Shown one piece after another: positions 3,804-48,655 of a stretch of 64,000 nucleotides of DNA. The notes under the pieces were generated by a model. It worked only from the letters and a program-made list of their open reading frames with translations, was not told where the DNA came from and did no database searches. Position numbers and translations under genes: made by a program. Location of the stretch: NCBI RefSeq assembly GCF_021026095.1, contig NZ_JAJNCU010000001.1:1-64000 (forward strand), written 5' to 3'. This stretch comes from Salinicoccus halitifaciens. GTDB taxonomy: Bacteria; Bacillota; Bacilli; Staphylococcales; Salinicoccaceae. Every line of letters starts with the position of its first letter. Position 1 is the first letter of the stretch.

Positions 3804-3811
3804 TGGATATG

Positions 3812-11484: not shown

Positions 11485-12492
11485 TTACCGCTTCACTTCA
11501 CTCGTTGCATCGAGCACTGTGTGCATGCCGGAGATGTCCTCGGTCAGGAAGTCGCCGCTGATCGTGTGTTTATAGAGCATGTTGCCAAGTGCATTCTTAA
11601 CGGTGTCTTCGTGACTCAGATTGTTCATCAGGCCGTGGATGATGCCCGCTGTATACGCGTCCCCGGTGCCGATCCGGTCGAGGATGTCCACTTCGTAGGA
11701 TTCCGTTTCAGTGATTTCACGATCCGTGTACATCATCCCTTTGATGATGTTTTTATTGGAATGGATGACGGTGCGCTGTGTGAAGGCGATGTGTTTGATC
11801 TTGTAGCGATCGCTGATTTTCTCAAGGATCGGCTTGAGCGTATCAGCATCCGGATTGCGTTCAAGGCCGTCCTTGATGTCTGTGCCGTCCTCGATCAGTT
11901 CCAACGGTTCATAGCCGAATATGACATCGCAGTAATGGATGAACTGCGGCATCGTCCGCCTGGCCTCCTCGAAACTCCAGAGGTTCCCCCTGAAGTTCAG
12001 GTCGGCACTGACGGTCATGCCCTCACTTTTGGCTGCCTTCAATGCTTCCAGCAGTATGGCCTGCAGCTCGATGTTGAGTGCCGGCGTGATGCCGCTGAAA
12101 TGGAACCAGTCATAATCTTGGAGAATTTTCTCGAAATCGTAGTCTTCCATGCTGGACTGTTCGAAGCTCGAGTACTTCCTGTCATAGATGACGGCGGAAG
12201 GGCGGAGATTGAACCCCTGTTCGAGGAAATATGTCCCCATGCGTGCACCCTGCATGTTGATGTGCTCAGTGTTGACATTGTTGCTTTTGAGTAAGGAGAC
12301 TGTACGCTGGCCGAACCCATTGTCGGGGAGGGCAGTGATCATGGATGTATCGATGCCTGAAGCGGCAAGGCTCATGGCGACATTCATCTCACTGCCGCCG
12401 ATATTGATGTTGAACTGATTGGCGGTCTTGAAAGTGGAGGAAGTCTCCGTACTCAACCGCATCATGATTTCACCGAAAGTAATAAATTTCAT
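11485..12492 (-). CDS. kdgK: 2-keto-3-deoxygluconate kinase (copy 1)
   Basis: PfkB-family sugar kinase of 335 residues that phosphorylates 2-keto-3-deoxygluconate with ATP. Visible PfkB features are the N-terminal G-E-I-M-M-R-L, the G-G-S-E-M-N-V-A segment near residue 33, and the C-terminal active-site motif D-R-I-G-T-G-D-A-Y-T-A-G near residue 265, where the second aspartate is the catalytic base. It lies 2 bp after kdgA in a two-gene operon transcribed away from the LacI-type regulator, so it should be under that operator. A paralogue at 47007-48014 is highly similar, with a central block almost identical at DNA level. Confidence 0.9.
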   Translation of the reverse strand: MKFITFGEIMMRLSTETSSTFKTANQFNINIGGSEMNVAMSLAASGIDTSMITALPDNGFGQRTVSLLKSNNVNTEHINMQGARMGTYFLEQGFNLRPSAVIYDRKYSSFEQSSMEDYDFEKILQDYDWFHFSGITPALNIELQAILLEALKAAKSEGMTVSADLNFRGNLWSFEEARRTMPQFIHYCDVIFGYEPLELIEDGTDIKDGLERNPDADTLKPILEKISDRYKIKHIAFTQRTVIHSNKNIIKGMMYTDREITETESYEVDILDRIGTGDAYTAGIIHGLMNNLSHEDTVKNALGNMLYKHTISGDFLTEDISGMHTVLDATSEVKR

Positions 12493-12494
12493 CT

Positions 12495-13133
12495 TTATTC
12501 TCCTTCCGCCAATTCCTGGTATCTTGCGACGAAGCTCTGTGTATTTTCTTTGACGACTTCAGGATTGGAACCATTATAGCCTTTCGCAAGCGCGCTGCCG
12601 ATGCCGATCGCAAACGCGCCATTCGCCATCCACTCGGACATATTCTCTTTATTGACACCGCCGGACGGCATAAGGTTTGCGTACGGGATCGGCCCTTTGA
12701 TGTCCTTGATGAAGGAAGCACCGAGCACCCCGCCCGGGAAGATCTTGATGACGTCCACACCGGACTTCATCGCAGCAGTGATTTCCGTTGCGGTGGCACA
12801 TCCCGGCAGGTAGGGGATCTGGTTCAGGTTGCACAGCTCGGAAACTTCCGCATCGAAGTGCGGGCTCACGACATAGCGGGCGCCGCTGCGGATGGCTGCA
12901 TCGGCGGTGCCGACGGACATCACCGTACCTGCACCGACGCATATGCCTGGTTGTTCTGCGAAGTGCTCGATGAGTTCTCCCGCTTTCGGCGTTGTGTAGG
13001 TGATTTCAATATTCTTGATGCCGCCCTCGATGATGCCTTCAATCATTTTGACGGTGTCGTCGAAACCCTGGCCCCTGACGACCGCAATGAGGTAGTTCTC
13101 TTTGATCTGTTTCAATATTTCATATTTCTTCAT
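12495..13133 (-). CDS. kdgA: KDPG aldolase (copy 1)
   Basis: 2-keto-3-deoxy-6-phosphogluconate aldolase, 212 residues, a class I TIM-barrel aldolase that yields pyruvate and glyceraldehyde 3-phosphate. The motifs V-V-R-G near residue 20, G-A-G-T-V-M near 68, V-S-P-H-F near 94, P-G-C-A-T-A-T-E near 115 and the Schiff-base lysine in V-I-K-I-F-P-G near 133 are all visible. It is the first gene of the kdgA-kdgK operon, with the divergent LacI regulator 113 bp upstream. A paralogue is at 48017-48655. Confidence 0.92.
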   Translation of the reverse strand: MKKYEILKQIKENYLIAVVRGQGFDDTVKMIEGIIEGGIKNIEITYTTPKAGELIEHFAEQPGICVGAGTVMSVGTADAAIRSGARYVVSPHFDAEVSELCNLNQIPYLPGCATATEITAAMKSGVDVIKIFPGGVLGASFIKDIKGPIPYANLMPSGGVNKENMSEWMANGAFAIGIGSALAKGYNGSNPEVVKENTQSFVARYQELAEGE

Positions 13134-30423: not shown

Positions 30424-30554
30424 CGTGGACAGAAACAGATATTCAACTGATGGGGAGTGTACGGCCAGGATGGTTTTATTTATTTCAGTATAGTTTACTT
30501 ACATAATTACAGCGGGTACATGATAGTATAACGATGAAGGCGGGGTGGACGGTT

Positions 30555-31697
30555 ATGGACATGCAGGAAATGAAGCGGATATTCTCAAGCAATGAAGGTA
30601 TCGTACTGACATTCATATTCACCCTGATCTTCATCATCACGAACCTCATCATGGTGGATTTCGCAGGTGTTCAGGAGCTGATCATAGGACAGGACCAGAC
30701 ACCGTTCTTCATCCTGATACTCATCGTGATCCTGGCATACCTCTTTAAAAATTCGAAAGTTGAAATGAATCAGACGAGATTTTTATTTATAACAGTATGG
30801 AGCTTGTACGTCCTCAGCATCTTCATCAGCATGGTCGTGAACCGGGACTTCGTATGGACGGAAGGGTTCGTGCTTGTGATGCTGTCGGTCATGTTCTGCT
30901 TCAGGCTGCCGAGGGAACTTTTAACTATCATAGTGATTTCAGCCTTGATCAGTCTGCCGGCGTTGCTGTTGCAGCCGCATGTCCTGAATGAGACCGGTGC
31001 GACATTCGTATTGATCTATACTGCTGGATTGATGTTCCTGCCGAGGAGTAATAAAGCCATGTTGTATTACGGCCTGCCGGCATTTGCACTGCTGCTGGTA
31101 ATGACACACAGCAGAACTGCGATTGCGGTGTTTGTGGTGGTCACTGTGATCCAGCTGATTTACATCAATTTATATCAGAAGTCAGGACGGGACAGGAGAC
31201 GGTTCTTTATTGTTTTGGCAGCAGTGCTTCTCGGGGTGATCATCGCATTCATCAGACCGATATACAATTTCTTCATCGGCGGCAGCATCACTTCCGATGG
31301 GACGGATTTGAATCAGCTGACCTCCGGCAGGTTCGAGCCGTGGATGCATGTCGTGGATAATATGTCATGGTTCGGTGAGGGGCGTGACTATATCGACTTT
31401 ACATCACTGCTCCATGTGCACAATATATTTTTTGATACATTGGGACGGTACGGCCTCATCACCACTCTGCTGTTTACCGTGTTGCTTATCGGGGCGTTGA
31501 TCATTGCGTTGAGGTCGGTCAGGACATTTCATATCGCACTGTACATCTTCACATTCATCCTGATTGGGATGACGGAGTACAATTACCTTTTCATGTTTGT
31601 TTACTTCAGCCCGGTGATACTGTTGTTTGCGATAGTGAGTTATATGATAGAGACAGCGGATATAAATTATTTTAAACACCTGCACCCATTTAGATGA
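30555..31697 (+). CDS. O-antigen-ligase / polymerase-like membrane protein (Wzy_C type)
   Basis: Membrane protein of about 380 residues with roughly ten to eleven hydrophobic segments and the Wzy_C/O-antigen ligase signature in a large loop: L-T-S-G-R-F-E-P-W, G-E-G-R-D-Y and H-V-H-N-I-F-F-D-T-L-G-R-Y-G near residues 255-305. Such proteins polymerise or transfer surface polysaccharide units outside the membrane. I prefer the ATG at 30555, which follows GGGGTGG by about 7 bases, over the one at 30534. A sequence closely matching its last third of membrane segments reappears as a remnant at 33143-33244. Confidence 0.72.
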   Translation: MDMQEMKRIFSSNEGIVLTFIFTLIFIITNLIMVDFAGVQELIIGQDQTPFFILILIVILAYLFKNSKVEMNQTRFLFITVWSLYVLSIFISMVVNRDFVWTEGFVLVMLSVMFCFRLPRELLTIIVISALISLPALLLQPHVLNETGATFVLIYTAGLMFLPRSNKAMLYYGLPAFALLLVMTHSRTAIAVFVVVTVIQLIYINLYQKSGRDRRRFFIVLAAVLLGVIIAFIRPIYNFFIGGSITSDGTDLNQLTSGRFEPWMHVVDNMSWFGEGRDYIDFTSLLHVHNIFFDTLGRYGLITTLLFTVLLIGALIIALRSVRTFHIALYIFTFILIGMTEYNYLFMFVYFSPVILLFAIVSYMIETADINYFKHLHPFR

Positions 31698-31720
31698 GTG
31701 TAGGTGTTTATCTTGTTCTT
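31674..31720 (+). terminator. Terminator overlapping the end of the ligase-like gene
   Basis: AAACACCTGCAC pairs with GTGTAGGTGTTT (12 bp, one G-U). The left arm lies in the last codons of the gene and the right arm after the stop. The following sequence is T-rich but interrupted. Confidence 0.6.
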
Positions 31721-31849
31721 TAAATGAAAATGTTAATAACTTTTTTGTGTGAGATGTCTCCTAGAATAATTGAGGTGAATAATAAAGTAATTAAGCATTT
31801 TGAAACTCAAGATGTTTAACAACAAATCATAATATTTTACAAAAAATGA

Positions 31850-32710
31850 TTACTCTATACAAACATTGTAAAATGCAGTACCGAAACTAGTTACAGAAGC
31901 ATGAGTTTTATCAACATCAACTTCTCTGAACTGTTTAGTGCTATCGAAAATCTCACGTGTCATTCCTAAGGTCTGGATGACTTTTTCTTCATCTCCACCA
32001 AATTCATCTAATAAACGATCAATAGCTTCTTTAGATTTTATAATACTATCGTTAGACTTAATATCAAAATATTCTTGAGTATTATAATAGGGATCATAAA
32101 AAGTTTTCTTTTTCAAAGGTTTGCCAGGTGGGATATTGATTAATCCTACTCTTTGCAAATTACTTAAACTAATAGCAGTTTGATCAGAGTCGAACATATC
32201 ATCTATTATAAAATAATTATTTAAATAAATACTACTTAAATCCTCAAATTTTAGAAGATAACGAGCCACCGGAATCGTTGACTTATTCATCTTTTTAAAA
32301 AGATAAGCATCAATAGGAGATAATTGTTTAATAACCTCTACGAAAGCATGATTAACTTCTTTGTTATATCTATTGTCCATTGACCTTGATATTAAGTTGA
32401 TAAACAACTCTCTTAAATCCTTTTCATCTATATAATATTTAGTACTTTCTAAGGCTGGTCCAATAAGGCTAAGTTTAGGTTCCTGGATATTTTCGTCAGG
32501 TATTTCTGATATATTATCACCAATTGTTAAAAGAAATTTTTCTAAATCTTTTTGACGGATCGCTTGTTTCTTAGCACTGGCAAAATTTACCCAACCGAAT
32601 GCATAATCCCAGGCTGCTCCAAATGTTTCTGCAGGTTTTTCCGCAGCTTTGCCTGCGAATTTATCTAAAAAAGCTTTTGTTGCACCATATCCTAAATTAT
32701 TTTCATCCAT
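31850..32710 (-). CDS. Abi-alpha (DUF4393) family protein, possible phage defence
   Basis: Protein of about 286 residues matching the Abi_alpha/DUF4393 pattern: a basic and small-residue N-terminus, then E-P-K-L-S-L-I-G-P-A-L-E-S near residue 88, E-L-F-I-N-L-I-S-R-S-M-D near 111 and E-V-I-K-Q-L-S-P-I-D-A near 136. Members have been linked to abortive infection, but the biochemical activity is unknown. The start at 32710 follows GGAGGAAG. The gene is distinctly AT-rich, points against its neighbours and lies between an intact O-antigen-ligase-like gene and the 3' remnant of a second one, so it was probably acquired by insertion. No partner gene is visible. Confidence 0.7.
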   Translation of the reverse strand: MDENNLGYGATKAFLDKFAGKAAEKPAETFGAAWDYAFGWVNFASAKKQAIRQKDLEKFLLTIGDNISEIPDENIQEPKLSLIGPALESTKYYIDEKDLRELFINLISRSMDNRYNKEVNHAFVEVIKQLSPIDAYLFKKMNKSTIPVARYLLKFEDLSSIYLNNYFIIDDMFDSDQTAISLSNLQRVGLINIPPGKPLKKKTFYDPYYNTQEYFDIKSNDSIIKSKEAIDRLLDEFGGDEEKVIQTLGMTREIFDSTKQFREVDVDKTHASVTSFGTAFYNVCIE

Positions 32711-33142
32711 TTTTCTTCCTCCGCCTCTTAGTTTCAAAAAATTATAATATCATTTTGAAAATAACAGTCCATAACTACTCTTTTAATTTTAACTTTGTCC
32801 AATTCTAAAGTCATAGTTTGGATTTTATCTTTATTGAGTTTCTAAAAATCTAGAATATCTATTCTGATACTTTTTCTTTGTGAAATATATAAAGATAGGA
32901 TTATAAATTCTAACATTTCTTCAAATATAACATGTATTATTTAGAATTTTAAGAAATCTACTGTAATAGTATTTAAGCTTTTCTCTTACGTTAAAGTCAA
33001 TTACGAAATACCTATAATAAATTTGAAAAATTATTACTGAATTAAATTTATTTCTCTTTCAAGATTTATTGCTTATTATTTTAGTAAGAAATACTGATGA
33101 GTATTTTTAAGATCTTATCTTAATTAGCACTCCGAATCTATT
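32711..33142. other. Very AT-rich non-coding stretch
   Basis: No coding frame, tRNA or clear repeat is seen. It must carry the promoter of the Abi-alpha gene at its left end. It reaches to the edge of the polysaccharide-gene remnant and probably belongs to the acquired segment. Confidence 0.4.
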
Positions 33143-33244
33143 TACCTTTTCATGTTCGTCTACTTCAGCCCGGTGATATTGTTGTTTGTGATAGTGAGTC
33201 ATCTGCTTGAAGTTATCCGGGAGGAAAAAAGAAGATATATATAA
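33143..33244 (+). pseudogene. 3' remnant of an O-antigen-ligase-like gene
   Basis: An open frame encodes about 33 residues: Y-L-F-M-F-V-Y-F-S-P-V-I-L-L-F near its start, then H-L-L-E-V-I-R-E-E-K and a stop at 33242. The first 20 or so residues match the end of the intact protein encoded at 30555-31697 nearly exactly, and the DNA is also very similar. No start codon or upstream domain remains. It is followed by its own terminator. The simplest reading is a second, tandem ligase-like gene whose front part was lost when the AT-rich Abi-alpha segment arrived. Confidence 0.8.
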
Positions 33245-33263: not shown

Positions 33264-33293
33264 TGCCCATGCCAAGAGGCGTGGGTATTTTTT
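33264..33293 (+). terminator. Terminator after the ligase remnant
   Basis: GCCCATGCC pairs with GGCGTGGGT (G-U included) around AAGA, followed by ATTTTTT. Confidence 0.8.
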
Positions 33294-33397
33294 AAAGTTT
33301 TTGTAAGGACAGGGTCATTTTATTTTAAGCCGTTCAATGTTAAACTGTATTATGGTAAAAAATACAAGTTAAAACAATGATGAGAAAGGACGTTTTC

Positions 33398-33952
33398 ATG
33401 CCAAGGTTCACTAGGATGGTTTTATTGACTTTAAGCTTCATTACGGTGATTGGGGTGGTCCTTGCCAGTGTCATCGCACTCAACTTCTCCGAAGTGAGAA
33501 GCGGCATCGGGAGTGTTTTCGGTCAGTCTTCTCCGGATGAGTCGGAAATGCCTGAAGAGGACGAAGAACTTGCGGAACTGGCCGATGCCGGTTCGGACGG
33601 AGAGTTTAATGTATCCGATGAATCAATGGATGATGGCCTGCCGAGTGAGCAGCAATTCGCAGACGATCTTCACCATATGACCCATCAGAAGGTCAGAGCC
33701 TCACCAAAGTGGGGGAGCCTTGCAATCACAGATGAGCGTATCGAGCAGATGTATGAAACAGCCGAGGCATCGGATTATACCTACAGGAAATTTTATATGA
33801 GAGCTCTTGAAGATTGGATGGAAGGCGACTTCTCGAATGCCGTTCAGGTGCACAACATTATATGGACTGAACAGAACGGCAATGTCGGTAAGGCTACAGG
33901 TCTGATGACACCGGAAGAAGAAGAGGAATATATTGAAAGACATTTTGAGTGA
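33398..33952 (+). CDS. Membrane-anchored protein with acidic linker (possible DUF6241 family)
   Basis: About 184 residues from the ATG at 33398, chosen because AGAAAGGA lies 7 bases upstream; earlier in-frame ATGs overlap this site. One N-terminal membrane segment (about 5-27) is followed by an acidic linker rich in D, E and S (about 45-85), then a small helical domain with L-H-H-M-T-H-Q-K-V-R-A near residue 90 and an E-rich C-terminus. The H-H-M-T-H-Q-K-V motif resembles DUF6241 proteins of Bacillota, whose function is unknown. Topology suggests an extracellular domain. A terminator overlaps its end, so it is monocistronic. Confidence 0.65.
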   Translation: MPRFTRMVLLTLSFITVIGVVLASVIALNFSEVRSGIGSVFGQSSPDESEMPEEDEELAELADAGSDGEFNVSDESMDDGLPSEQQFADDLHHMTHQKVRASPKWGSLAITDERIEQMYETAEASDYTYRKFYMRALEDWMEGDFSNAVQVHNIIWTEQNGNVGKATGLMTPEEEEEYIERHFE

Positions 33953-34073: not shown

Positions 34074-34124
34074 CACCGAATATATCCTATCCTTGAGTTA
34101 TCAATTTCAGTGAGGGGTATGAAA

Positions 34125-35621
34125 ATGACAAATTATAATTATGATGTAGTGGTAGTGGGTACAGGAAACGCGGCTTTGAGTGCAGCGCTGAGTGCAGGCG
34201 AAGATGGTTTGAAGGTGCTGATGGTGGAGAAGGGGCCGAAGCATAAGCGTGGGGGCAACTCATTCTTCACAGATGGTGCGATCCGTACGGCCTACGGTGA
34301 TAAGGAAGGTTTAAGCCGTGTCATTGATAGCTTAAGTGAATCGGAGCTTGAGGAAATAGAACTTCCGGAATACATGGAGGAGGATTACTACGGGGACATC
34401 ATGAAGGTGACCCAGGAGAAAAGTGATCCGGCTCTGGCGGGTCACCTCAGCTCGAAATCCTATGAGACAATCCTTTGGATGAAGGAGCAGGGCGTCGAGT
34501 TCCAGCTCAACGAAAACCAGTACTTCGAGAAGGATGGCAAAAAGGTGTTCTGGGGCGGCCTGCCGATCAAGACGGTGAACAAGGGCATCGGTCTTGTGGA
34601 GGCATTGTTTGATAAAGCTGAGGAGCGCGGCATCGATATCTGGTACGAATCGCCGGCGGTCTCCGTTGAAAAGACGGATGGAAAGATTTCAGGCGTCCAT
34701 GTAGACAGTAAGGAGTTTGGTGAAGTGCTCGTGGAATGCCGTTCTGTGATTCTTGCGTGCGGCGGATTTGAAGCGAACAAGGAGAAGCGTGCGGAGCACT
34801 TGGGCCCGCAGTGGGAAAATGCGGTCGTCCGCGGCAGTGAGTACAATACTGGCGACGGTATTTCCATGGCACTGGGTGTGGGTGTAGCGAAGTCAGGACA
34901 GTATGACGGATGCCATGCGCATACGACGGATTACAATTCACCACGTACTGGAGATTACAGTAAACCGGGCGACATTTATAAAAAGTCCTCGTATCCATTG
35001 GGTCTGATCGTGAACGTGGAAGGTGAACGCTTCGTCGATGAAGGTCTGGATTTCAGAAACTATACTTATGCCAAGTACGGCAAGGAAACGCTGAAGCAGA
35101 CGGATCAGAAGGCATTCCAGATTTATGATTCCCAGGTGAGACACCTGCTCAGGAAAGAGTACGACCTTGAAGAGGCGACGATGATTAAAGCTGATACAGT
35201 GGAGGAATTGGCTGAGAAGATGGGCGTGGATAAGGAGAACTTCCTTCAGACCATCAAAGGATACAATGCGGCGGTCCAGGACGGCGACTACAACCCGGGT
35301 GTGAAGGACGGCAAGTCGACCAAAGGTTTGGATGTCGATAAGACGAACTGGGCATTGAAGTTCGAAGAGGGGCCATTCTATGCCTATCCGGTCACATGCG
35401 GCATCACATTCACATTCGGTGCGGTCAAAGTGAACGAGCATGCCGAAGCGCTGGATGAGAACGGTGAGAAAATCGACGGCCTCTATGCGGCCGGGGAAAT
35501 GGTCGGGGACCTGTTCCATCATAACTATCCGGGCGGTTCGGGCCTCATGTCCGGTTCCGTCTTCGGAAGGACGGCAGGGGATTCCGTCAAAGAATATTTG
35601 AAGCAGCCGGCAGGGATATAA
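34125..35621 (+). CDS. FAD-dependent tricarballylate dehydrogenase-like protein (TcuA family)
   Basis: Fumarate reductase/succinate dehydrogenase-type flavoprotein of about 498 residues. The N-terminal dinucleotide motif is V-V-V-G-T-G-N-A-A near residues 8-16, followed by G-G-N-S-F-F-T-D-G-A near 45, the pattern of TcuA. The C-terminal FAD motif L-Y-A-A-G-E and N-Y-P-G-G-S-G-L are also present. TcuA oxidises tricarballylate to cis-aconitate in Salmonella, with TcuB re-oxidising the flavin. No TcuB-like gene is nearby. The LysR gene, TctCAB transporter and PrpF-like isomerase in the neighbourhood support a tricarboxylate role. The start at 34125 is chosen because GAGGGG lies 7 bases upstream. 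Other fumarate-reductase-like oxidoreductases remain possible. Confidence 0.75.
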   Translation: MTNYNYDVVVVGTGNAALSAALSAGEDGLKVLMVEKGPKHKRGGNSFFTDGAIRTAYGDKEGLSRVIDSLSESELEEIELPEYMEEDYYGDIMKVTQEKSDPALAGHLSSKSYETILWMKEQGVEFQLNENQYFEKDGKKVFWGGLPIKTVNKGIGLVEALFDKAEERGIDIWYESPAVSVEKTDGKISGVHVDSKEFGEVLVECRSVILACGGFEANKEKRAEHLGPQWENAVVRGSEYNTGDGISMALGVGVAKSGQYDGCHAHTTDYNSPRTGDYSKPGDIYKKSSYPLGLIVNVEGERFVDEGLDFRNYTYAKYGKETLKQTDQKAFQIYDSQVRHLLRKEYDLEEATMIKADTVEELAEKMGVDKENFLQTIKGYNAAVQDGDYNPGVKDGKSTKGLDVDKTNWALKFEEGPFYAYPVTCGITFTFGAVKVNEHAEALDENGEKIDGLYAAGEMVGDLFHHNYPGGSGLMSGSVFGRTAGDSVKEYLKQPAGI

Positions 35622-35630
35622 TTAATAGTG

Positions 35631-35664
35631 AAGCGCGCTAGCCATGAGGCAGCGCGCTTTTTTA
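35631..35664. terminator. Bidirectional terminator between tcuA-like and LysR genes
   Basis: AGCGCGCT appears on both sides of a short loop with GCC/GGC extension, and T-run TTTTTT follows. The LysR stop codon lies at its right edge. Confidence 0.85.
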
Positions 35665-36531
35665 GTGATTGATATTTCCCCACTCCTGCATGTGGGTGAT
35701 GAACTTATCCACAGTCACAAGGTGCTGGACATCAGCATTGTACATGAGCCAGGTGTCACGTGTGATCGGCGCACCTTCCGAATCCAGGACCGGTTCTTTG
35801 TGCAGATGGTCTTCTTCTTTTAAACAGATGGCGGGTACGATGGTGTAGCCGAGGCCGCGCTTCACCAGTTCCTTGCTCGTTTCCAGCCGGTCGACCTCCA
35901 TTTCGATGGTGGCGGGCGTGGCATATGTATCGGCCCACCAGTGCTGAATCGTTTCCTTTAGGGAGGTGTCGGTGCTGTACCGGATCTGCCGATGTCCCGG
36001 AAGCTGCTTAAGGTCAAGCTTCTCCTGGGAGATGATGTAGAGGGGTTCTTTATTTAAAAGTGTCTTATGTTTATGGCCCGGGTAGTCCGTGCGCAGTATG
36101 CCGATATGGATATTGCCTCTGGATAAGGCGCTGTGGATGGCACTGCTCCAGCCGGTCTGAACGTTGAAGCGGACTTTCGGGTATTTGAGCGAGAAGCTTT
36201 TGAGCAGGTCCGGCAGCACATACTGTGCAAAGTTGCTCGAGACGCCGATCTTCAATGTACCTGCGATTTCGCCCTCCATATTATTGATGTTGTCCTTCAT
36301 GACCATGAACGCTTTCAGCATATCGCGGGCATAGGCGACGAGGTATTCACCTTCCGCAGTGAACTCGATGCCGCTCCGCGTCTTGATGATGAGTCCCGCC
36401 CCGATTTCCTCCTCAAGGTTCTTCAGCCTGTAGCTTAGGGAAGGCTGGGAGACGTACAAACGTTCCGCCGTCTTCGTTATATTCTTCTCTTCATGCAGTA
36501 TGTTCAGCATATGCCAATCTTTATAGTCCAT
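35662..36531 (-). CDS. LysR-family transcriptional regulator of the tricarboxylate cluster
   Basis: LysR-type regulator of about 289 residues. The helix-turn-helix is near residues 15-35 (N-I-T-K-T-A-E-R-L-Y-V-S-Q-P-S-L-S) and a type-2 periplasmic-binding effector domain follows (G-T-L-K-I-G-V-S-S near 91). I place the start at 36531 because AAGGTGAT precedes it; a GTG at 36540 is possible. It is divergent from tctC and convergent with the TcuA-like gene, so it probably activates one or both in response to a tricarboxylate. The gap to tctC contains an inverted repeat at 36608-36631. Confidence 0.85.
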   Translation of the reverse strand: MDYKDWHMLNILHEEKNITKTAERLYVSQPSLSYRLKNLEEEIGAGLIIKTRSGIEFTAEGEYLVAYARDMLKAFMVMKDNINNMEGEIAGTLKIGVSSNFAQYVLPDLLKSFSLKYPKVRFNVQTGWSSAIHSALSRGNIHIGILRTDYPGHKHKTLLNKEPLYIISQEKLDLKQLPGHRQIRYSTDTSLKETIQHWWADTYATPATIEMEVDRLETSKELVKRGLGYTIVPAICLKEEDHLHKEPVLDSEGAPITRDTWLMYNADVQHLVTVDKFITHMQEWGNINH

Positions 36532-36607
36532 CGATATCACCTTGAATATTTAAAATATTTTGTTAACTCATATATCATTATGGCTTATAAACACAGGGTT
36601 ATCAAAT

Positions 36608-36631
36608 TATTTTATCGTATCGGATAAAATA
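36608..36631. promoter_or_regulatory. Inverted repeat in the LysR-tctC intergenic region
   Basis: Arms TATTTTATC and GATAAAATA flank a 6-base centre. It lies between the two divergent promoters and contains an ATC-N-GAT core suited to a LysR-type site. The shared 12-mer TATTTCACTTAT follows at 36636-36647. Confidence 0.5.
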
Positions 36632-36650
36632 TCAATATTTCACTTATGTA

Positions 36651-36665
36651 ATGTAAGCGGTTACT
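36651..36665 (+). promoter_or_regulatory. Candidate cre site before tctC
   Basis: ATGTAAGCGGTTACT matches 14 of 15 positions of WTGNAARCGNWWWCA, only the last base differing. It is about 28 bp before the tctC start, a position suited to CcpA repression of tricarboxylate uptake. Confidence 0.6.
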
Positions 36666-36692
36666 CTATGTCTATAACATTCAGGGGGATGG

Positions 36693-37802
36693 ATGAATAT
36701 GAAAAAACTATCTTTGATGATATCGATAATATTTTTATGCGGCGCGCTTATGGCATTGAATCCGCTGACCACGAGCGGCAGCGGGGAAGAGGATCCGGCC
36801 GGGCACAACCTTTTGACATTCGTCGTGCCTTTTGAGGCAGGAGGCGGCACCGATATATTCGGCCGCTTTTTCACACCATATTTCTCGGACCAGATGGAAG
36901 GGAATCCGCTGGTGCAGGTCGAGAATATCCCGGGCGGGGGAAGCATCACGGGGACGAATGAATTTGCGCAGTCGAAGCCGAAGGACGGCAGCCATTTGCT
37001 GACATCCAGTGCTTCCTCGCATATCCCTTATATGCTGGATCAGTCTTCCGTGAACTATGATTTCAAAAACATGAAGCCGATCATCGGCTCGCCAATGGGC
37101 GGTGTCGTCTACACCACACCTGAGAAAGCCGAACAGTTCAGGGAGGATTTGACGAGTTTCGAGGAGCCGCTTTATTACGCAGGCATTTCACCGAGCGGAC
37201 TGGACCTCGTGACGCTGTTGTCATATGAAGTGCTCGACCTCAATTTCCATGGTGTACTCGGCTACGGCGGACGCGGCCCGTCACGTGTTGCATTCGAGCA
37301 GGGTGAGAGCAATCTGGATTACCAGACGACCTCTGCCTACAACAACAACGTCAAGCCGCTTGTGGAGAACGGCACGGCCGAACCTTTGTACAGTCTCGGA
37401 CAGATCGATCAGAACGGCGACCTTGTAAGGGATCCGCAGTTCCCGGAGCTGCCGACGGTGGAGGAAGTTTATATTGACCAATACGGCGAAGCACCGTCCG
37501 GTGAAGTATGGGAGGCGTACAAGCAGATGGTGAATGCCGCATATACTTTGAATAAAGTCATCTGGGTCCATGAAGATGCACCGGTGGAATCAATCGCCCG
37601 CCTGCAGGATGGGGCCGAAGGCATCAGACAGGACGAAGATTTTATAGAAAACTCGGAAACCGTGCTTGAAGGCTACGATGTCCTGTCCGGTGATGCGCTG
37701 CAGAAACAGATTGACGAAGCGTTCAATGTTTCCGAAAGCAGTAAGACACTGATACAGGATTACCTGCTTGAAAAATACGATCTGGATATTACAGAGCTCT
37801 AG
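36693..37802 (+). CDS. tctC: Tripartite tricarboxylate transporter receptor (TctC/Bug family)
   Basis: Solute receptor of a TTT transporter, 369 residues. The hydrophobic leader (about 4-23) ends before the mature domain, which has the Bug-family pattern F-V-V-P-F-E-A-G-G-G-T-D near residue 44-55 and N-I-P-G-G-G-S near 82. The only cysteine of the leader lies in I-F-L-C-G, not a standard lipobox, so how the receptor stays on the cell is unclear. An uncleaved signal anchor is one possibility. It is the first gene of the tctC-tctA-tctB-prpF operon, with AGGGGGAT as RBS. The ligand is likely a tricarboxylate such as tricarballylate, citrate or aconitate, by context. Confidence 0.82.
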   Translation: MNMKKLSLMISIIFLCGALMALNPLTTSGSGEEDPAGHNLLTFVVPFEAGGGTDIFGRFFTPYFSDQMEGNPLVQVENIPGGGSITGTNEFAQSKPKDGSHLLTSSASSHIPYMLDQSSVNYDFKNMKPIIGSPMGGVVYTTPEKAEQFREDLTSFEEPLYYAGISPSGLDLVTLLSYEVLDLNFHGVLGYGGRGPSRVAFEQGESNLDYQTTSAYNNNVKPLVENGTAEPLYSLGQIDQNGDLVRDPQFPELPTVEEVYIDQYGEAPSGEVWEAYKQMVNAAYTLNKVIWVHEDAPVESIARLQDGAEGIRQDEDFIENSETVLEGYDVLSGDALQKQIDEAFNVSESSKTLIQDYLLEKYDLDITEL

Positions 37803-37814
37803 GAGGGGTTCATT

Positions 37815-39302
37815 ATGATAGAAAGCGCAATTGAAGCATTGGCGATCGTACTTGATCCTTCACGGCTCATTTATATGTTCCTAGGCATCGGAATCGGCAT
37901 CGTCGTGGGTCTTTTGCCGGGGCTGAGCGGCACGGTGGGTATGGCATTGCTGCTGCCGTTCGTCTTCGGGATGGACCCTTATGTAGGGATCGCCCTACTC
38001 ATCGGCATGGTCGCGGTCATACAGACCGGGGACACGTTCCCCTCCATACTGCTTGGCATACCCGGCACTTCCGGCTCCCAGGCAACCATCATGGACGGCT
38101 ATCCGCTCGCACAGCAGGGTAAGGCCGCAAAAGCGATGGGGGCGGCGTTCTTCAGTTCGCTCGTCGGCGGGGTCATCGGCGGCATCGCTCTGTTCCTCAC
38201 GATCCCGTTCGCAGAACCCTTGATCACAGCATTCAGCTCACCTGAACTGTTCATGCTGACGATGCTCGGGCTCAGCATGACGGGACTCCTGGCAGGAAAA
38301 TCGGTTTTCAAAGGCATTCTTGCAGGCCTGGTCGGTCTGCTGCTCGGTGCAATCGGCAGTGCACCTGCGGTGCCGGAATACCGTTATACTTTCGACTCAT
38401 TGTATTTGACGCAGGGATTGTCGCTGCCGGTGGTGGCCATGGCGATATTCGCCTTCCCGATCATCATTACAATGCTTACGGAAAAGAAGAAAGTGTCTGA
38501 AGTCGCAAAGCTTGAAGGCGGCGCCCTGCAGGGTGTGATGACTTCATTGAAGAATAAATTCCTCATGGCACGGAGTGCAGTCATCGGGGTCATCATCGGT
38601 TTCATACCGGGCCTCGGTGGCAGCGTCGTCGACTGGATCGCCTACGGCTTCGGTAAAAAGACCGTGAAGAACAACACCTTCGGCGAAGGGGACATCCGGG
38701 GTGTCATCGCACCTGAAAGTGCAAACAACGCAAAAGAGGGCGGATCGATGATCCCGACGCTTTTATTCGGCATACCGGGGAGCGGGACGACCGCAATACT
38801 GCTCGGTGGACTCACGCTGATGGGGCTTGAAGCGGGACCGTCCATGATCACGACGAACTTGGACGTGACACTTTCAATAGTATGGACACTTGTATTCGCG
38901 AACATATTCGGTGCAATACTATGCCTGATGTTGATACGGCCGATCTCTAAACTCAGTACGATCAGCGGTGAAATGATCGTGCCGTTCCTGCTGGTGCTGC
39001 TCGTCATCGGCGCATATCAGAGTTCATTGTCCTGGGGCGATCTTGTCGTATTCGTCATTATCGGACTGTTCGGCTATCTCATGACCATACTCGACTGGCC
39101 GAGGCCGCCGCTCCTCATCGGTTTCGTCCTTGCGATGTCGGCTGAAAGATACTATTGGATATCCATTGAACGGTACGGCTGGGAATGGATCACCAATCCG
39201 CTGGTGATCATCCTTGCGGTGGTCATCATCGTGCTCCTGACAGGAGGCGCCATCATGAAGCGGTTCAGTAGAAGGATAGAAAGTGGAGGTGAAAGCCGAT
39301 GA
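37815..39302 (+). CDS. tctA: TTT transporter large membrane subunit (TctA)
   Basis: TctA-family permease, 495 residues with about eleven to twelve membrane segments. The family motif G-L-L-P-G-L-S-G-T-V-G near residues 33-43 and a second copy-like motif F-I-P-G-L-G-G near residue 262 are visible, with G-T-S-G-S-Q-A-T-I near 88. It carries out Na+- or H+-coupled uptake together with TctB. It lies 12 bp after tctC with AGGAGGGG as RBS and overlaps tctB by 4 bp. Confidence 0.92.
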   Translation: MIESAIEALAIVLDPSRLIYMFLGIGIGIVVGLLPGLSGTVGMALLLPFVFGMDPYVGIALLIGMVAVIQTGDTFPSILLGIPGTSGSQATIMDGYPLAQQGKAAKAMGAAFFSSLVGGVIGGIALFLTIPFAEPLITAFSSPELFMLTMLGLSMTGLLAGKSVFKGILAGLVGLLLGAIGSAPAVPEYRYTFDSLYLTQGLSLPVVAMAIFAFPIIITMLTEKKKVSEVAKLEGGALQGVMTSLKNKFLMARSAVIGVIIGFIPGLGGSVVDWIAYGFGKKTVKNNTFGEGDIRGVIAPESANNAKEGGSMIPTLLFGIPGSGTTAILLGGLTLMGLEAGPSMITTNLDVTLSIVWTLVFANIFGAILCLMLIRPISKLSTISGEMIVPFLLVLLVIGAYQSSLSWGDLVVFVIIGLFGYLMTILDWPRPPLLIGFVLAMSAERYYWISIERYGWEWITNPLVIILAVVIIVLLTGGAIMKRFSRRIESGGESR

Positions 39303-39742
39303 ACAAAGCTTTGGCCAATATATTATTCACCGGCTTCATATTCGTCATGTTCACCCTCGCCTGGATCGAGGCGCTGACATTCACCCGGCTGGCGCAGTTC
39401 TTTCCATTATATATATCACTCGCAGGTTCGACCTTATCGCTCGTATATCTGTTGAAGACGCTGATTGATTACAGGAAGGAGACGTCGGCGGAGGAACGCG
39501 CAGAGCATATACAGATACTTAAACCATTGCGTTACGTCGTATGGGTGCTCGGCTATCTGCTGCTGATCTATGTCTTCGGATTCATCATAGCGACCGCAGT
39601 CTTCCTGTTCGTATTCCTGATATACGAATCCCGCATGAAGGTGATGCAGTCTTTAGTGTCCATGGCCATCACGCTTGTCGTCGTGACATATTTGAGCGCA
39701 GCAATCAACATCGAGTGGCCGGCGAGCCTGCTCGGACTATAG
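39299..39742 (+). CDS. tctB: TTT transporter small membrane subunit (TctB)
   Basis: TctB-family protein of 147 residues with four hydrophobic segments and a charged loop around residues 50-72. It starts within the ATGA overlap with tctA and is followed by prpF after 19 bp. TctB subunits are poorly conserved in sequence, so position and topology are the main evidence. Confidence 0.83.
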   Translation: MNKALANILFTGFIFVMFTLAWIEALTFTRLAQFFPLYISLAGSTLSLVYLLKTLIDYRKETSAEERAEHIQILKPLRYVVWVLGYLLLIYVFGFIIATAVFLFVFLIYESRMKVMQSLVSMAITLVVVTYLSAAINIEWPASLLGL

Positions 39743-39761
39743 GAGAAAAGGAGAGTAAACC

Positions 39762-40958
39762 ATGCATGAATTTGAAAAGATCCGCTCCGTCATCATTAGG
39801 GGCGGCACAAGCAAAGGTGTATTCATAATGAAGAATGAGCTGCCGACAGATCCCGTGGTGCGGGATGCAGTCATTTCATCAATGTTCGGCGGTGCAGACG
39901 ATAGGCAGATCGACGGCCTCGGCGGTGCAAACTCCTTGACCAGCAAGGTCGCCATCATCAGTGTATCGAGAAGGGAAGATGCAGATGTCGATTACACATT
40001 CGGCCAGGTCGATGTGAAAACCGGAGTCGTCGATTACAACTCCAACTGCGGCAATATATTGAGCGGTGTCGGCCCTTTTGCGATAGATGAAGGGCTGGTT
40101 GAAATCACGGAACCTGTGACCCGCGTCAGGATCTACAATACGAATACGGATAAGGTAATCCATGCGGAAGTGCCGGTGCAGAACGGCAAGGCGGCAATCA
40201 CCGGTGACTATGCGATAGACGGCGTGCCGGGCACTGGGGCGAAGATCACTCTCGACTTCATCGATGCAGCGGGCTCCAAGACCGGTGAGTTGTTCCCGAC
40301 GGGGCAGAGGAAGGAGTTTATGGCACTCGGTGATTACGGTGATATCGAAGTCAGTATTGTCGATGTTGCGGCACCTGCCGTCTTCGTCCGGGCAGAAAGC
40401 CTCGGACTGACGGGAAGGGAGTTGAGCCATGAGCTCTCCGATGAACACCTTGAAGTCTTGGAACGGATACGCGGCACCGCAGCCGAGCGGCTCGGCTTCG
40501 TCGATGATCCGACGGAAGCGGTGGCGAAGACCCCGTCTTCCCCGAAAGTCATCATGGTTGCGAAAAGCATGGATTATACATCGGAGGCGGGTGTCGTGAT
40601 TGAGGGGAAAGATACCAGCCTCACCGCACGGGCGATGTCAATGCAGAAGATGCACAAAGCCTATCCCGTGACCGGTGGACTCTGCACAGCCAGTGCCACG
40701 CAGCTTGAAGGGACAGTCGTCCATGATGTTTATAGCGGGACGGAGAGTGACGGTGATATCGTGATCGGCCACCCGACGGGGAAGATGAAGTTTGTCGTCG
40801 ACATTGAAGACTCAGGGGATGCCGTCGTATTCCATAAGACCGCAACGGCAAGGACCGCAAGGCGTCTGATGGAAGGCAATGCCTATGTTTCGAAGGAAAT
40901 ATTCTGGCAGTCGCCGGTGGGTGAGGAGCATCAGAGTCAGCAGAAGACGCTCGCCTGA
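39762..40958 (+). CDS. PrpF-family isomerase (methylaconitate / oxalomesaconate type)
   Basis: PrpF-like cofactor-independent isomerase of 398 residues with the diaminopimelate-epimerase fold. The start has I-R-G-G-T-S-K-G-V-F near residues 11-20, typical of the family. Candidate catalytic cysteines are in N-S-N-C-G-N near residue 90 and G-G-L-C-T-A near 308. Family members isomerise 2-methylaconitate, 4-oxalomesaconate or aconitate-type double bonds. In an operon with tctCAB and near a TcuA-like dehydrogenase, a role in moving an aconitate double bond is plausible. No prpB/C/D genes are present, so a methylcitrate role is unlikely here. A terminator follows. Confidence 0.82.
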   Translation: MHEFEKIRSVIIRGGTSKGVFIMKNELPTDPVVRDAVISSMFGGADDRQIDGLGGANSLTSKVAIISVSRREDADVDYTFGQVDVKTGVVDYNSNCGNILSGVGPFAIDEGLVEITEPVTRVRIYNTNTDKVIHAEVPVQNGKAAITGDYAIDGVPGTGAKITLDFIDAAGSKTGELFPTGQRKEFMALGDYGDIEVSIVDVAAPAVFVRAESLGLTGRELSHELSDEHLEVLERIRGTAAERLGFVDDPTEAVAKTPSSPKVIMVAKSMDYTSEAGVVIEGKDTSLTARAMSMQKMHKAYPVTGGLCTASATQLEGTVVHDVYSGTESDGDIVIGHPTGKMKFVVDIEDSGDAVVFHKTATARTARRLMEGNAYVSKEIFWQSPVGEEHQSQQKTLA

Positions 40959-47006: not shown

Positions 47007-48014
47007 TTATCTTTTAACTTCCTGGGTAGCATGCAGGACTTTATTCATCATGGCAATATCTTCAACAAGAAAATCTCCACTCACTGTATGCTTATAAAGC
47101 ATATTGCCTAGTGCATTATCAAGAGTTTCTTCATGACTTAAACCATTCATCAGCCCATGGATGATTCCTGAAGTATATGCATCTCCTGTACCGATCCGAT
47201 CTAAAATCTCCACTTCATATGCATCTGTTTCGATAATCTTCCCGTCAGTGAACATCATTCCTTTGATTATATTTTTGTTGGAATGGATGACCGTGCGCTG
47301 GGTAAATGCGATGTGCTTGATCTTGTAATGGCTGCTGATTTTCTCGAGAATCGGCTTGAGTGTATCAGCATTCGGATTGCGTTGAAGGCCGTCCTTGATG
47401 TCTGTGCCGTCCTCGATCAGTTCTAATGGCTCATAGCCGAATATGACATCGCAGTAATGGATGAACTGCGGCATCGTCCGCCTGGCCTCTTCAAAGCTCC
47501 AGAGGTTGCCCCTGAAGTTCAAATCCGCACTGACGGTCATGCCCTTATTTTTAGCGGTCTTCAATGCTTCGAGCAGTATGGCCTGTAGCTCGATGTTGAG
47601 CGCGGGGGTGATGCCGCTGAAATGGAACCAGTCATAATCTTCGAAGATGCTCTCGAAATCGTAATCTTCAATACCGGACTGTTCGAAGCTGGAATGTTTT
47701 CTGTCATATATAACAGATGAAGATCGCATATTAAATCCCTGTTCCAAAAAATAGACACCCATTTTGGAACCTTGCATTTTGATATTTCCAGTCTCAACGT
47801 TGTTACTCTTGAGAAGAGATATCACACGATATCCAAATCCATTATCTGGTAAAGTGCTGATTACGGATGTTTCAATTCCCGAAGCTGCAAGACTCATCGC
47901 TACATTCATTTCACTGCCACCAATATTGATGTTGAATTGATCAGCTGTTTTAAATGTGGAGGAGACATCTGTACTCAGGCGCATCAATATCTCGCCAAAA
48001 GTAATGAATTTCAA
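47007..48014 (-). CDS. kdgK: 2-keto-3-deoxygluconate kinase (copy 2)
   Basis: PfkB-family kinase of 335 residues, the same length as copy 1 and very similar along its whole length, including D-R-I-G-T-G-D-A-Y-T-S-G at the active site. It is the last gene of the minus-strand operon uxuA2-kdgA2-kdgK2. The ends of the gene are AT-rich and well diverged from copy 1, but the middle (about 47280-47700) is GC-rich and nearly identical to copy 1, including an exact 59-bp match (47431-47489 with 11909-11967). That suggests gene conversion. The function is the same as copy 1. Confidence 0.9.
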   Translation of the reverse strand: MKFITFGEILMRLSTDVSSTFKTADQFNINIGGSEMNVAMSLAASGIETSVISTLPDNGFGYRVISLLKSNNVETGNIKMQGSKMGVYFLEQGFNMRSSSVIYDRKHSSFEQSGIEDYDFESIFEDYDWFHFSGITPALNIELQAILLEALKTAKNKGMTVSADLNFRGNLWSFEEARRTMPQFIHYCDVIFGYEPLELIEDGTDIKDGLQRNPNADTLKPILEKISSHYKIKHIAFTQRTVIHSNKNIIKGMMFTDGKIIETDAYEVEILDRIGTGDAYTSGIIHGLMNGLSHEETLDNALGNMLYKHTVSGDFLVEDIAMMNKVLHATQEVKR

Positions 48015-48016
48015 TA

Positions 48017-48655
48017 TTATTCTCCTCCTGTCAGTTCCTTATATCTGGTCGAAAAAGCTTTGGCATTTTCTGAAATGACTTCAGGATTTGAGCCATCATA
48101 ACCTTTTACAAGCGCACTTCCGATACCAACAGCAAATGCACCATTATTAATCCAATCTCCCATGTTTTCCTTATTGACACCACCGGAAGGCATCAAATTC
48201 ACATGTGGAATCGGACCTTTGATATCTTTCATGTATGAAGCGCCGAGAAGACCACCCGGGAAGATTTTAATGACATCTACACCACTTTTTAAGGCTTGGG
48301 TGATTTCAGTTGCTGTAGTACATCCCGGAAGATAAGGAATCTGGTTTAAGTTGCAAAGTGCAGAGATGTCCGGATCAAAATGCGGACTTACCACGTATTT
48401 TGCGCCGGAACGGATGGCTGCATCAGCAGTTTCTCTGGACATTACAGTACCGGCACCTACACAAATGTTCGGGGTGTCTGCAAAGTGTTCGATAAGCTCG
48501 CTTGCTTTCGGTGTTGTGTAAGTGATTTCAATGTTTCTAATTCCACCTTTAATGATAGCGTCTATCATCTTAACAGTGTCATCAAAGTTTTTCCCTCTCA
48601 CAACAGCTACCAGATAGTTTTTATGAATTTTATTCAGAGTTTCGAATTTTTTCAT
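48017..48655 (-). CDS. kdgA: KDPG aldolase (copy 2)
   Basis: 212-residue KDPG aldolase with all class I motifs of copy 1, including V-V-R-G, G-A-G-T-V-M, P-G-C-T-T-A-T-E and the lysine in V-I-K-I-F-P-G. It lies 2 bp before kdgK2 and overlaps the end of uxuA2 by 4 bp. DNA is AT-richer than copy 1. It splits KDPG made by KdgK2 into pyruvate and glyceraldehyde 3-phosphate. Confidence 0.9.
   Translation of the reverse strand: MKKFETLNKIHKNYLVAVVRGKNFDDTVKMIDAIIKGGIRNIEITYTTPKASELIEHFADTPNICVGAGTVMSRETADAAIRSGAKYVVSPHFDPDISALCNLNQIPYLPGCTTATEITQALKSGVDVIKIFPGGLLGASYMKDIKGPIPHVNLMPSGGVNKENMGDWINNGAFAVGIGSALVKGYDGSNPEVISENAKAFSTRYKELTGGE

What the first reader, a model, noticed from the sequence alone, without database searches (positions are those of the whole stretch)
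31674..33244. Abi-alpha gene inserted at the expense of a second polysaccharide-ligase-like gene
The fragment at 33143-33244 is the C-terminal end of a protein nearly identical to the end of the intact gene at 30555-31697. Between them lies very AT-rich DNA with a minus-strand Abi-alpha gene. A replacement event by a defence gene in a surface-polysaccharide locus fits, and the locus may be an integration hot spot.
Basis: partly seen in the sequence, partly recalled or inferred. Interest (0 to 1): 0.65.

Follow-up and report, generated by a model that had tools for sequence, protein, structure and literature searches.

The report
Defence gene lodged behind duplicated gene-end
A phage-defence gene has been inserted at the very end of a cell-surface sugar gene, with about 70 bases of that gene repeated on its far side, and a few related bacteria show the same layout with other cargo and other target genes, so defence genes here may land on gene ends without carrying a mobility enzyme.

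Summary
Window 33142-33210 repeats 31583-31651, inside the 3' end of an intact Wzy/O-antigen-ligase-like gene (69 nt, 88%). Between the copies lies 28% G+C DNA with one minus-strand Abi-alpha gene (PF14337, E=7e-41).

The reading 'at the expense of a second ligase gene' is not supported. None of 15 family genomes with a (nearly) full-length gene has an intact tandem pair. The remnant carries the ancestral tail and terminator: its downstream DNA matches the empty-site relative Lacicoccus alkaliphilus (0/300 shuffles as good). The intact gene's last ~15 residues and terminator are new.

The hot-spot idea gains support. Salinicoccus kekensis has the same layout at the same gene with an AAA-ATPase/HNH cassette. 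A relative of that cassette in genome G043 follows another gene and is flanked by a 100-nt, 85% repeat of that gene's end; three relatives show the uninterrupted end. S. halodurans has a fourth case (211 nt), with unidentified cargo. A 400-kb sample of the window's genome showed none around AT-rich DNA.

This resembles 'insertion with long target duplication', described for restriction-modification genes. Here the cargo differs, the landing points are gene 3' ends, and no recombinase is recognised. The route is inferred.

The parts
30534..31697 (+). Intact Wzy_C/O-antigen-ligase-like membrane protein gene (387 aa; a second in-frame ATG at 30555), the insertion target
   Evidence: Pfam PF04932 E=3.7e-10; 85% identical orthologue in S. 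kekensis
31583..31651 (+). Left copy of the 69-nt direct repeat, inside the 3' end of the gene
31652..31697 (+). New 3' end of the gene: last ~15 codons (ETADINYFKHLHPFR), not shared with the relatives compared
   Evidence: C-termini; tail tests
31673..31710 (.). New hairpin spanning the stop codon, between the converging ligase and Abi-alpha genes; probable terminator
   Evidence: -20.6 kcal/mol, z=-5.7, 0/200 shuffles as good; inverted match. The consensus scan did not list it as a terminator
31850..32710 (-). Abi-alpha (DUF4393) abortive-infection gene, 286 aa from the ATG at 32710, preceded by GGCGGAGG; the mechanical ORF starts at 32737
   Evidence: start region printed; start chosen by eye
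32711..33106 (.). AT-rich DNA of the insert without recognised genes; presumably holds the Abi-alpha promoter (inference)
   Evidence: promoter-like sites no more than in shuffles; no DNA match to phages or plasmids outside the Abi gene
33107..33244 (+). Remnant of the ligase gene's 3' end: right repeat copy 33142-33210 followed by the ancestral tail codons and stop
33264..33287 (+). Ancestral terminator, corresponding to the one after the ligase gene in L. alkaliphilus
   Evidence: (-17.9, z=-5.3), alignment
33377..33952 (+). DUF6241 gene, the native right-hand neighbour (next gene after the ligase gene in L. alkaliphilus)

Best explanation
A short stretch of foreign DNA carrying an Abi-alpha gene and no recognised recombinase was inserted into the last ~100 bases of an intact Wzy-type ligase gene, leaving about 70-105 bases of that gene repeated on its far side. 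The ligase gene stays whole: the left copy keeps its reading frame and gains a new ~15-residue tail and hairpin from the insert, while the right copy keeps the ancestral tail and terminator as a 5'-truncated remnant. This is the anatomy called insertion with long target duplication. The same anatomy, at gene 3' ends, is seen with other cargo in relatives. Shown: the anatomy; the native origin of the remnant's tail (window, S. kekensis, G043; not resolved in S. halodurans); recurrence with other cargo and other genes. Inferred: that insertion ran through RecA-type recombination of incoming DNA (for instance after natural transformation), with one homologous and one illegitimate joint. Abi-alpha most likely protects by premature lysis of phage-infected cells, as its E. 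faecalis relative does; this is by homology only.
For: Repeat and cargo. Empty site: in L. alkaliphilus DUF6241 follows the ligase gene. Native tail: window remnant vs L. alkaliphilus z=5.4, S. kekensis remnant vs L. alkaliphilus z=4.7, remnant vs remnant z=15.1 (0/300 shuffles each), intact tail vs own remnant tail z=-0.1 (window) and 0.0 (S. kekensis). Same gene, other cargo: S. kekensis AAA+HNH. Other gene: G043, AAA+HNH after a Glyphos_transf gene with a 100-nt 85% repeat; DNA after the remnant's stop matches that after the intact gene in G044, G045, G046 (z=34.2, 18.0, 19.0; 0/300 each), DNA after the intact G043 gene does much less (3.1 with 4/300, 1.3, 0.8). S. halodurans: 211-nt, 90.6% repeat of a transporter-like gene's end around 31% G+C DNA. 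Gene-end alignment: the four cases z=11.9-113.5, three negative controls 0.1-0.8. Background: 400 kb of G000 gave two repeat pairs, neither around AT-rich DNA. No convincing terminal inverted repeats, and no shared ends except between the two related AAA/HNH cassettes' coding parts.
Against: The copies differ by 9-15%, and by 35% in the S. kekensis core (41/63), so no fresh exact duplication is seen. Both ligase remnants share GAATCTATT upstream of the repeat, absent from the intact genes, which two independent insertions would not give. Three further AT-rich inserts next to gene ends showed no clear repeat (S. kekensis acyltransferase/DUF6119 z=-0.4, S. carnicancri 0.5, S. sediminis 2.7 with 3/100 shuffles). 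Window intact tail vs L. alkaliphilus gave z=3.2 (4/300) and S. kekensis remnant vs L. qingdaonensis only 0.9. S. halodurans tails could not be polarised and its cargo is not identified as defence. The repeat scan's threshold missed the S. kekensis case, so the background figure is not sensitive to decayed repeats. The synonymous excess between copies may come from selection on the intact copy alone. Four cases, one family.
Confidence: 0.65

Rival explanations
1. Stripped-down integrated element: a prophage or island once integrated site-specifically at the ligase gene's 3' end, supplying a replacement end and displacing the old one (as e14 does at icd in E. coli), then lost everything but its defence gene. 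S. kekensis kept another element's cargo.
For: Abi-alpha relatives sit in phage settings: the four relatives among 156 other order genomes lie among phage-like ORFs (judged from the translations, no family search); 63 of the 80 viral loci kept (143 found) carry relatives of phage integrase, repressor, antirepressor or SSB genes, the integrase in 9; nine Staphylococcus phage records carry it. The icd/e14 layout, the prophage supplying a new gene end and leaving a 163-bp remnant, is the same in form (PMC6379469, passages).
Against: No integrase or other phage gene recognised in either insert; the four tyrosine-recombinase matches of G000 lie far away. The exact core pattern is in 0 viral contigs (a narrow pattern). 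Repeat lengths vary (about 70 to 210 nt) and three different genes are hit; in G043 and S. kekensis related cassettes use different genes.
Confidence: 0.2
2. One reading: an ancestral tandem pair of ligase genes, the second replaced by the defence gene, leaving its 3' end.
For: The remnants of the window and S. kekensis share ESIYLFM and EVIREE, unlike the intact genes; G024 has a decayed second copy elsewhere.
Against: No intact tandem pair in 15 family genomes with a (nearly) full-length gene. The single gene of L. alkaliphilus carries the remnant-type tail and terminator. The same anatomy recurs at two unrelated genes, where it would need further lost tandem copies.
Confidence: 0.08
3. One older insertion before the window species and S. 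kekensis split; cargo was later exchanged by homologous recombination in the ligase gene on the left and the remnant on the right (a hot spot kept up by flanking homology).
For: Shared right border GAATCTATTTACC and homologous remnant tails (z=15.1). Hot spots without mobile genes that turn over by recombination at flanking genes are known (PMC5635113 and PMC10250203, passages).
Against: Upstream of the shared border only the S. kekensis remnant is ligase-like (60 nt: z 3.3 and 3.8 against L. alkaliphilus and L. qingdaonensis, 1.2 and 1.3 against S. kekensis and window intact genes; window remnant -1.1 to 0.6). It does not explain the G043 and S. halodurans sites.
Confidence: 0.07

Closest known systems
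Insertion with long target duplication of restriction-modification genes (Nobusato et al. 2000; Furuta et al. 2010; both seen here only as cited in PMC3874152)
   Same: Defence gene without a mobility gene; [quoted passage not shown] uninterrupted site in relatives
   Different: Cargo is Abi-alpha or an AAA/HNH pair; landing points are gene 3' ends, where the insert can supply a new C-terminus; copies are 85-91% identical (65% in the S. kekensis core)
e14 prophage at icd (displaced gene 3' end)
   Same: Insert supplies the working 3' end; old 3' end left as a remnant beyond the insert (PMC6379469 passage)
   Different: No integrase recognised, inserts of 1.5-3.2 kb with the cargo only, three unrelated target genes
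Abi-alpha of Enterococcus faecalis V583 prophage 6 (EF2833, DUF4393)
   Same: Same Pfam family over 233 residues; the weak best fold match is 3H35, the entry that paper also names
   Different: Stand-alone chromosomal gene, no phage genes recognised beside it; activity untested
Core defence hotspots of Pseudomonas aeruginosa
   Same: Defence systems turn over between fixed flanking genes without an obvious single mobiliser (PMC10250203 passages)
   Different: Here a repeated gene end marks the insertion, and single small cassettes are involved

Membership tests
Abi-alpha (PF14337 / DUF4393) | Full-length profile match above the curated cut-off | tested here: met
   140.8 bits against 29, profile 2-196 of 196; PHROG 2232 E=3.5e-65
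Abi-alpha (PF14337 / DUF4393) | Carried in a prophage, the usual context (a habit, not a definition) | tested here: not met
   No phage gene recognised among the ORFs around it; DNA matches to phages and plasmids only in the Abi gene. Relatives are in phage settings
Abi-alpha (PF14337 / DUF4393) | Aborts phage infection by premature lysis | not testable with these tools
   Shown for the E. faecalis protein (PMC6356687, abstract and passages)
Insertion with long target duplication | Direct repeats in the order of 100 bp, variable in length, flanking the insert | tested here: met
   69 nt, ~120 nt (S. kekensis), 100 nt, 211 nt
Insertion with long target duplication | Uninterrupted site with one copy in relatives | tested here: met
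   L. alkaliphilus for the ligase gene; G044, G045, G046 for the G043 gene, over about 120 nt past the stop. Not resolved for S. halodurans
Insertion with long target duplication | No transposase, integrase or terminal inverted repeats in the insert | tested here: met
   None recognised among the ORFs (families; most small S. halodurans ORFs not searched); best terminal inverted match E=0.19
Insertion with long target duplication | The two copies derive from one target sequence at insertion | tested here: inconclusive
   Synonymous excess between copies P=0.017 (window), 9e-8 (S. kekensis), 0.010 (G043), 6e-5 (S. halodurans) fits aged duplicates with the intact copy under selection as well as two alleles
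Insertion with long target duplication | Cargo is a restriction-modification system, as in the described cases | tested here: not met
   Abi-alpha; AAA+HNH. It works like that class; it is not one of the described restriction-modification cases
Site-specific integration at a gene 3' end (e14/icd type) | Integrase encoded by the element | tested here: not met
   None recognised in the insert; four tyrosine-recombinase matches elsewhere in G000. Serine recombinases were not searched
Tandem ligase pair with the second gene replaced | Intact tandem pair in relatives | tested here: not met
   0 of 15 family genomes with a (nearly) full-length gene

The most novel reading that the evidence does not exclude
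In this family of Gram-positive bacteria, single phage-defence genes or pairs are themselves the mobile unit: they land without any recombinase at the 3' ends of host genes, duplicating 70-210 bases, and can hand the host gene a fresh C-terminus and terminator so that the insertion costs little. Long target duplication would then be a general route for defence genes and not a peculiarity of restriction-modification systems.
Probability: 0.35. Interest if true: 0.75.

Novelty: new variant of a known kind. Interest (0 to 1): 0.58.

Why it matters
How defence genes without mobility genes move is an open question; many hot spots lack recognisable mobile elements or integrases (PMC5635113, passages). 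Four insertions that still carry a scar, with uninterrupted relatives for two of the three target genes, make the route testable by comparison and in the laboratory. The scar (a gene-end repeat around AT-rich DNA) is a simple signature with which to look for further small defence cargo. It also shows how a surface-polysaccharide gene can take up a neighbour and change its own C-terminus without being lost.

Tried and rejected
Exact pattern of the ligase 3' core in viral contigs, to find an attachment site: 0. Gene-end repeats around the four Abi-alpha relatives in the order genomes: none seen around the Abi gene in three loci; L063 has several short direct repeats, read as phage intergenic repeats and not followed. 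DNA search of the insert: one plasmid and nine phage records, Abi gene stretches covering 11-16% of the query. Viral search with the single protein: no relative confirmed; with an alignment, 143, of which 80 were kept. Class-wide search for the HNH partner: 21 of 398 genomes, best E=6e-11, not followed. Structure: AlphaFold model with mean pLDDT 70.5, best solved-structure match 3H35 at E=0.17, no PDB sequence match; too weak for a mechanism. Common cassette ends or terminal inverted repeats: none convincing. New terminator at the left junction as a general feature: strong in the window and S. kekensis, weak in G043 (z=-2.3, 5/200), absent in S. halodurans (z=0.3), so not claimed as general.

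Papers: ten searches ran. In their listings I saw no paper on this locus. Five papers hold both 'target duplication' and 'abortive infection'; of these I saw passages of PMC3874152 only, the other four in the listing only. Passages were seen of PMC6356687 (with abstract), PMC6379469, PMC10250203, PMC5635113, PMC13376191 (not used), PMC3874152 and PMC4978471. No paper was read whole.
Full report
What is there. Window 30534-31697 encodes an intact 387-aa membrane protein of the O-antigen ligase/Wzy family (PF04932, E=3.7e-10). It is followed by 28% G+C DNA with one minus-strand gene of the Abi-alpha family (PF14337, E=7e-41; PADLOC PDC-S47), whose likely start is the ATG at 32710 behind GGCGGAGG (chosen by eye). 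Then comes a fragment of the ligase gene's 3' end. The match is 58/64 nt by BLAST and 69 nt at 88% without gaps (31583-31651 and 33142-33210). Beyond it the copies part: the intact gene ends in ETADINYFKHLHPFR, the fragment in EVIREEKRRYI.

Which end is the old one. In Lacicoccus alkaliphilus (G002, loci L019/L029) the gene after the ligase gene is DUF6241, which in the window follows the fragment. I compared the DNA 63-170 nt past the start of the repeat, 300 shuffles per pair. The fragment's tail matches L. alkaliphilus (z=5.4, 0/300), L. qingdaonensis more weakly (3.2, 3/300), and the fragment of S. kekensis (15.1, 0/300); the S. kekensis fragment matches L. alkaliphilus (4.7, 0/300) but not L. 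qingdaonensis (0.9). The intact gene's tail does not match its own fragment's tail (-0.1; S. kekensis 0.0). Against the simple picture, the window's intact tail gave z=3.2 (4/300) with L. alkaliphilus. The hairpin after the fragment (33264-33287) corresponds to the one after the whole gene in L. alkaliphilus; the intact window gene has a new hairpin across its stop codon (31673-31710). In S. kekensis the old hairpin has decayed (z=+0.8) while a new one follows the intact gene (z=-7.5). So the fragment most likely holds the ancestral end, and the working gene has a new one.

Not a second gene. Of 33 family genomes, 17 gave ligase matches, 15 of them (nearly) full length. A second, 3'-end copy beside the gene occurs only in the window's genome and in S. 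kekensis; no intact tandem pair occurs. A DNA pattern of the core was found twice in these two and once in L. alkaliphilus and L. qingdaonensis; it does not reach the more diverged genes of the other 11 species. G024 has a decayed second copy at another locus, before polysaccharide genes.

A hot spot. In S. kekensis DSM 23173 (G005; named by the equal contig) the same gene is followed by 26% G+C DNA with an AAA ATPase (AAA_21 E=3e-20) and a protein with HNH-family matches. In PADLOC the ATPase matches AriA best (1.6e-22), then AbiLi (1.9e-20) and PDC-M62A (2.6e-19); the second protein matches PDC-M62B best (2.3e-21) and Septu PtuB weakly; Pfam HNH is below its cut-off. Then follow a ligase fragment and the same downstream genes, DUF6241 being lost. 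The two inserts share nothing of note; similarity resumes at GAATCTATTTACC. The nine bases GAATCTATT are shared by both fragments but not by the intact genes, which suggests common ancestry of the right border, hence the rival of one insertion with later cargo exchange.

Other genes, same anatomy. A relative of the AAA/HNH pair (HNH 46% identical) in genome G043, of another genus, lies behind a 715-aa Glyphos_transf/glycosyltransferase gene and is flanked by a 100-nt, 85% repeat of that gene's end (here PDC-M62A and B are the best PADLOC matches). Thirteen orthologues were compared: the DNA behind the remnant matches that behind the intact genes of G044, G045 and G046 strongly (z=34.2, 18.0, 19.0; 0/300 each) and of three others weakly (3.4-4.7), whereas the DNA behind the intact G043 gene reaches at most 3.1 (4/300, with G044). 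A scan of 33 sequences in hand (500 kb, overlapping loci counted twice) found one further case around AT-rich DNA: S. halodurans, a transporter-like gene's end (211 nt, 90.6%) around 1.84 kb of 31% G+C DNA with only small, unidentified ORFs. There the tails of three relatives differ and the old end could not be told. The scan also found, in L. qingdaonensis, 151-column repeats (79%) around the ligase gene itself; the other hits were repeats inside long genes. At its threshold it missed the decayed S. kekensis pair. In 20 stretches of 20 kb from the window's own genome two pairs met the same filter, both apparently between neighbouring paralogous genes (not checked by a family search) and not around AT-rich DNA.

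Test on gene ends. The last 250 nt of a gene was aligned with the following DNA, with 100 shuffles. The four cases, already known, gave z=31.1 (window), 11.9 (S. kekensis), 113.5 (S. halodurans), 39.4 (G043). Three further AT-rich inserts beside a gene end gave -0.4, 0.5 and 2.7. Three negative controls gave 0.2, 0.1 and 0.8. So the repeat marks some, not all, such inserts.

How it may arise. [quoted passage not shown] also PMC4978471, passage). The primary papers were not seen. In S. halodurans all 15 counted base differences between the copies lie at positions 3-122 of the 198 compared and the rest is identical, a mosaic that suggests a crossover inside the repeat. This, and the notion of homology-facilitated illegitimate recombination (recalled; from no call), lead me to propose incoming DNA joined by homologous recombination on one side and illegitimately on the other. 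That step is inference. Differences between copies are richer in synonymous changes than random ones (P=0.017 window, 9e-8 S. kekensis, 0.010 G043, 6e-5 S. halodurans), but selection on the intact copy alone could cause much of that.

What the cargo does. Abi-alpha of E. faecalis prophage 6 causes premature lysis of phage-infected cells and is reported as widespread in prophages (PMC6356687, abstract and passages). Relatives here agree: 4 of 156 other order genomes, all among phage-like ORFs by my reading of the translations; 143 viral contigs, of which 80 were kept and 63 carry relatives of further phage genes; nine Staphylococcus phage records and one plasmid record. Within 33 family genomes the window's gene is the only member found. 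Its action is inferred by homology. The model is of moderate confidence and its best match, 3H35 (E=0.17), is an uncharacterised protein that the paper also names.

Verdict. It is a variant of a known but little-understood process.

Noticed in passing
L028:1996-2144 and 3659-3807 (Lacicoccus qingdaonensis): 151-column, 79% direct repeats flank the ligase gene itself, as if this gene had also been inserted with a long duplication, here of a gene's 5' part.
   Followed up: partly
L031:5682-8625 (S. carnicancri) and L030:7938-8542 (S. sediminis): The 3' end of the same transporter-like gene that carries the S. halodurans insert is followed by a PDC-S06 AAA_13 protein and two small HicAB-like genes (the latter by eye) in one species and by a Phd-type antitoxin with a partner in another: a second possible hot spot, without clear repeats.
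   Followed up: partly
L017:1226-4013 (S. kekensis): The ligase gene is also preceded by AT-rich genes (DUF6119 and an unknown 283-aa protein) between it and an acyltransferase gene; no repeat of the acyltransferase end was found.
   Followed up: partly
L026:5689-6249 (G024): Decayed, 5'-truncated second copy of the ligase gene at a separate locus before polysaccharide genes.
   Followed up: partly
L017:9600-9990 (S. kekensis): The DUF6241 gene is gone here, though bases before and after it in the window are still recognisable.
   Followed up: no
window 34110-40958: A block of metabolic genes (flavin reductase-like, LysR, tripartite-transport-like) lies between DUF6241 and a thioredoxin-reductase-like gene, which are neighbours in L. 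alkaliphilus (by eye); possibly another insertion.
   Followed up: no
window 11485-12842 and 47007-48364: Two stretches 35.5 kb apart are 71-73% identical in the same order, probably paralogous genes.
   Followed up: no
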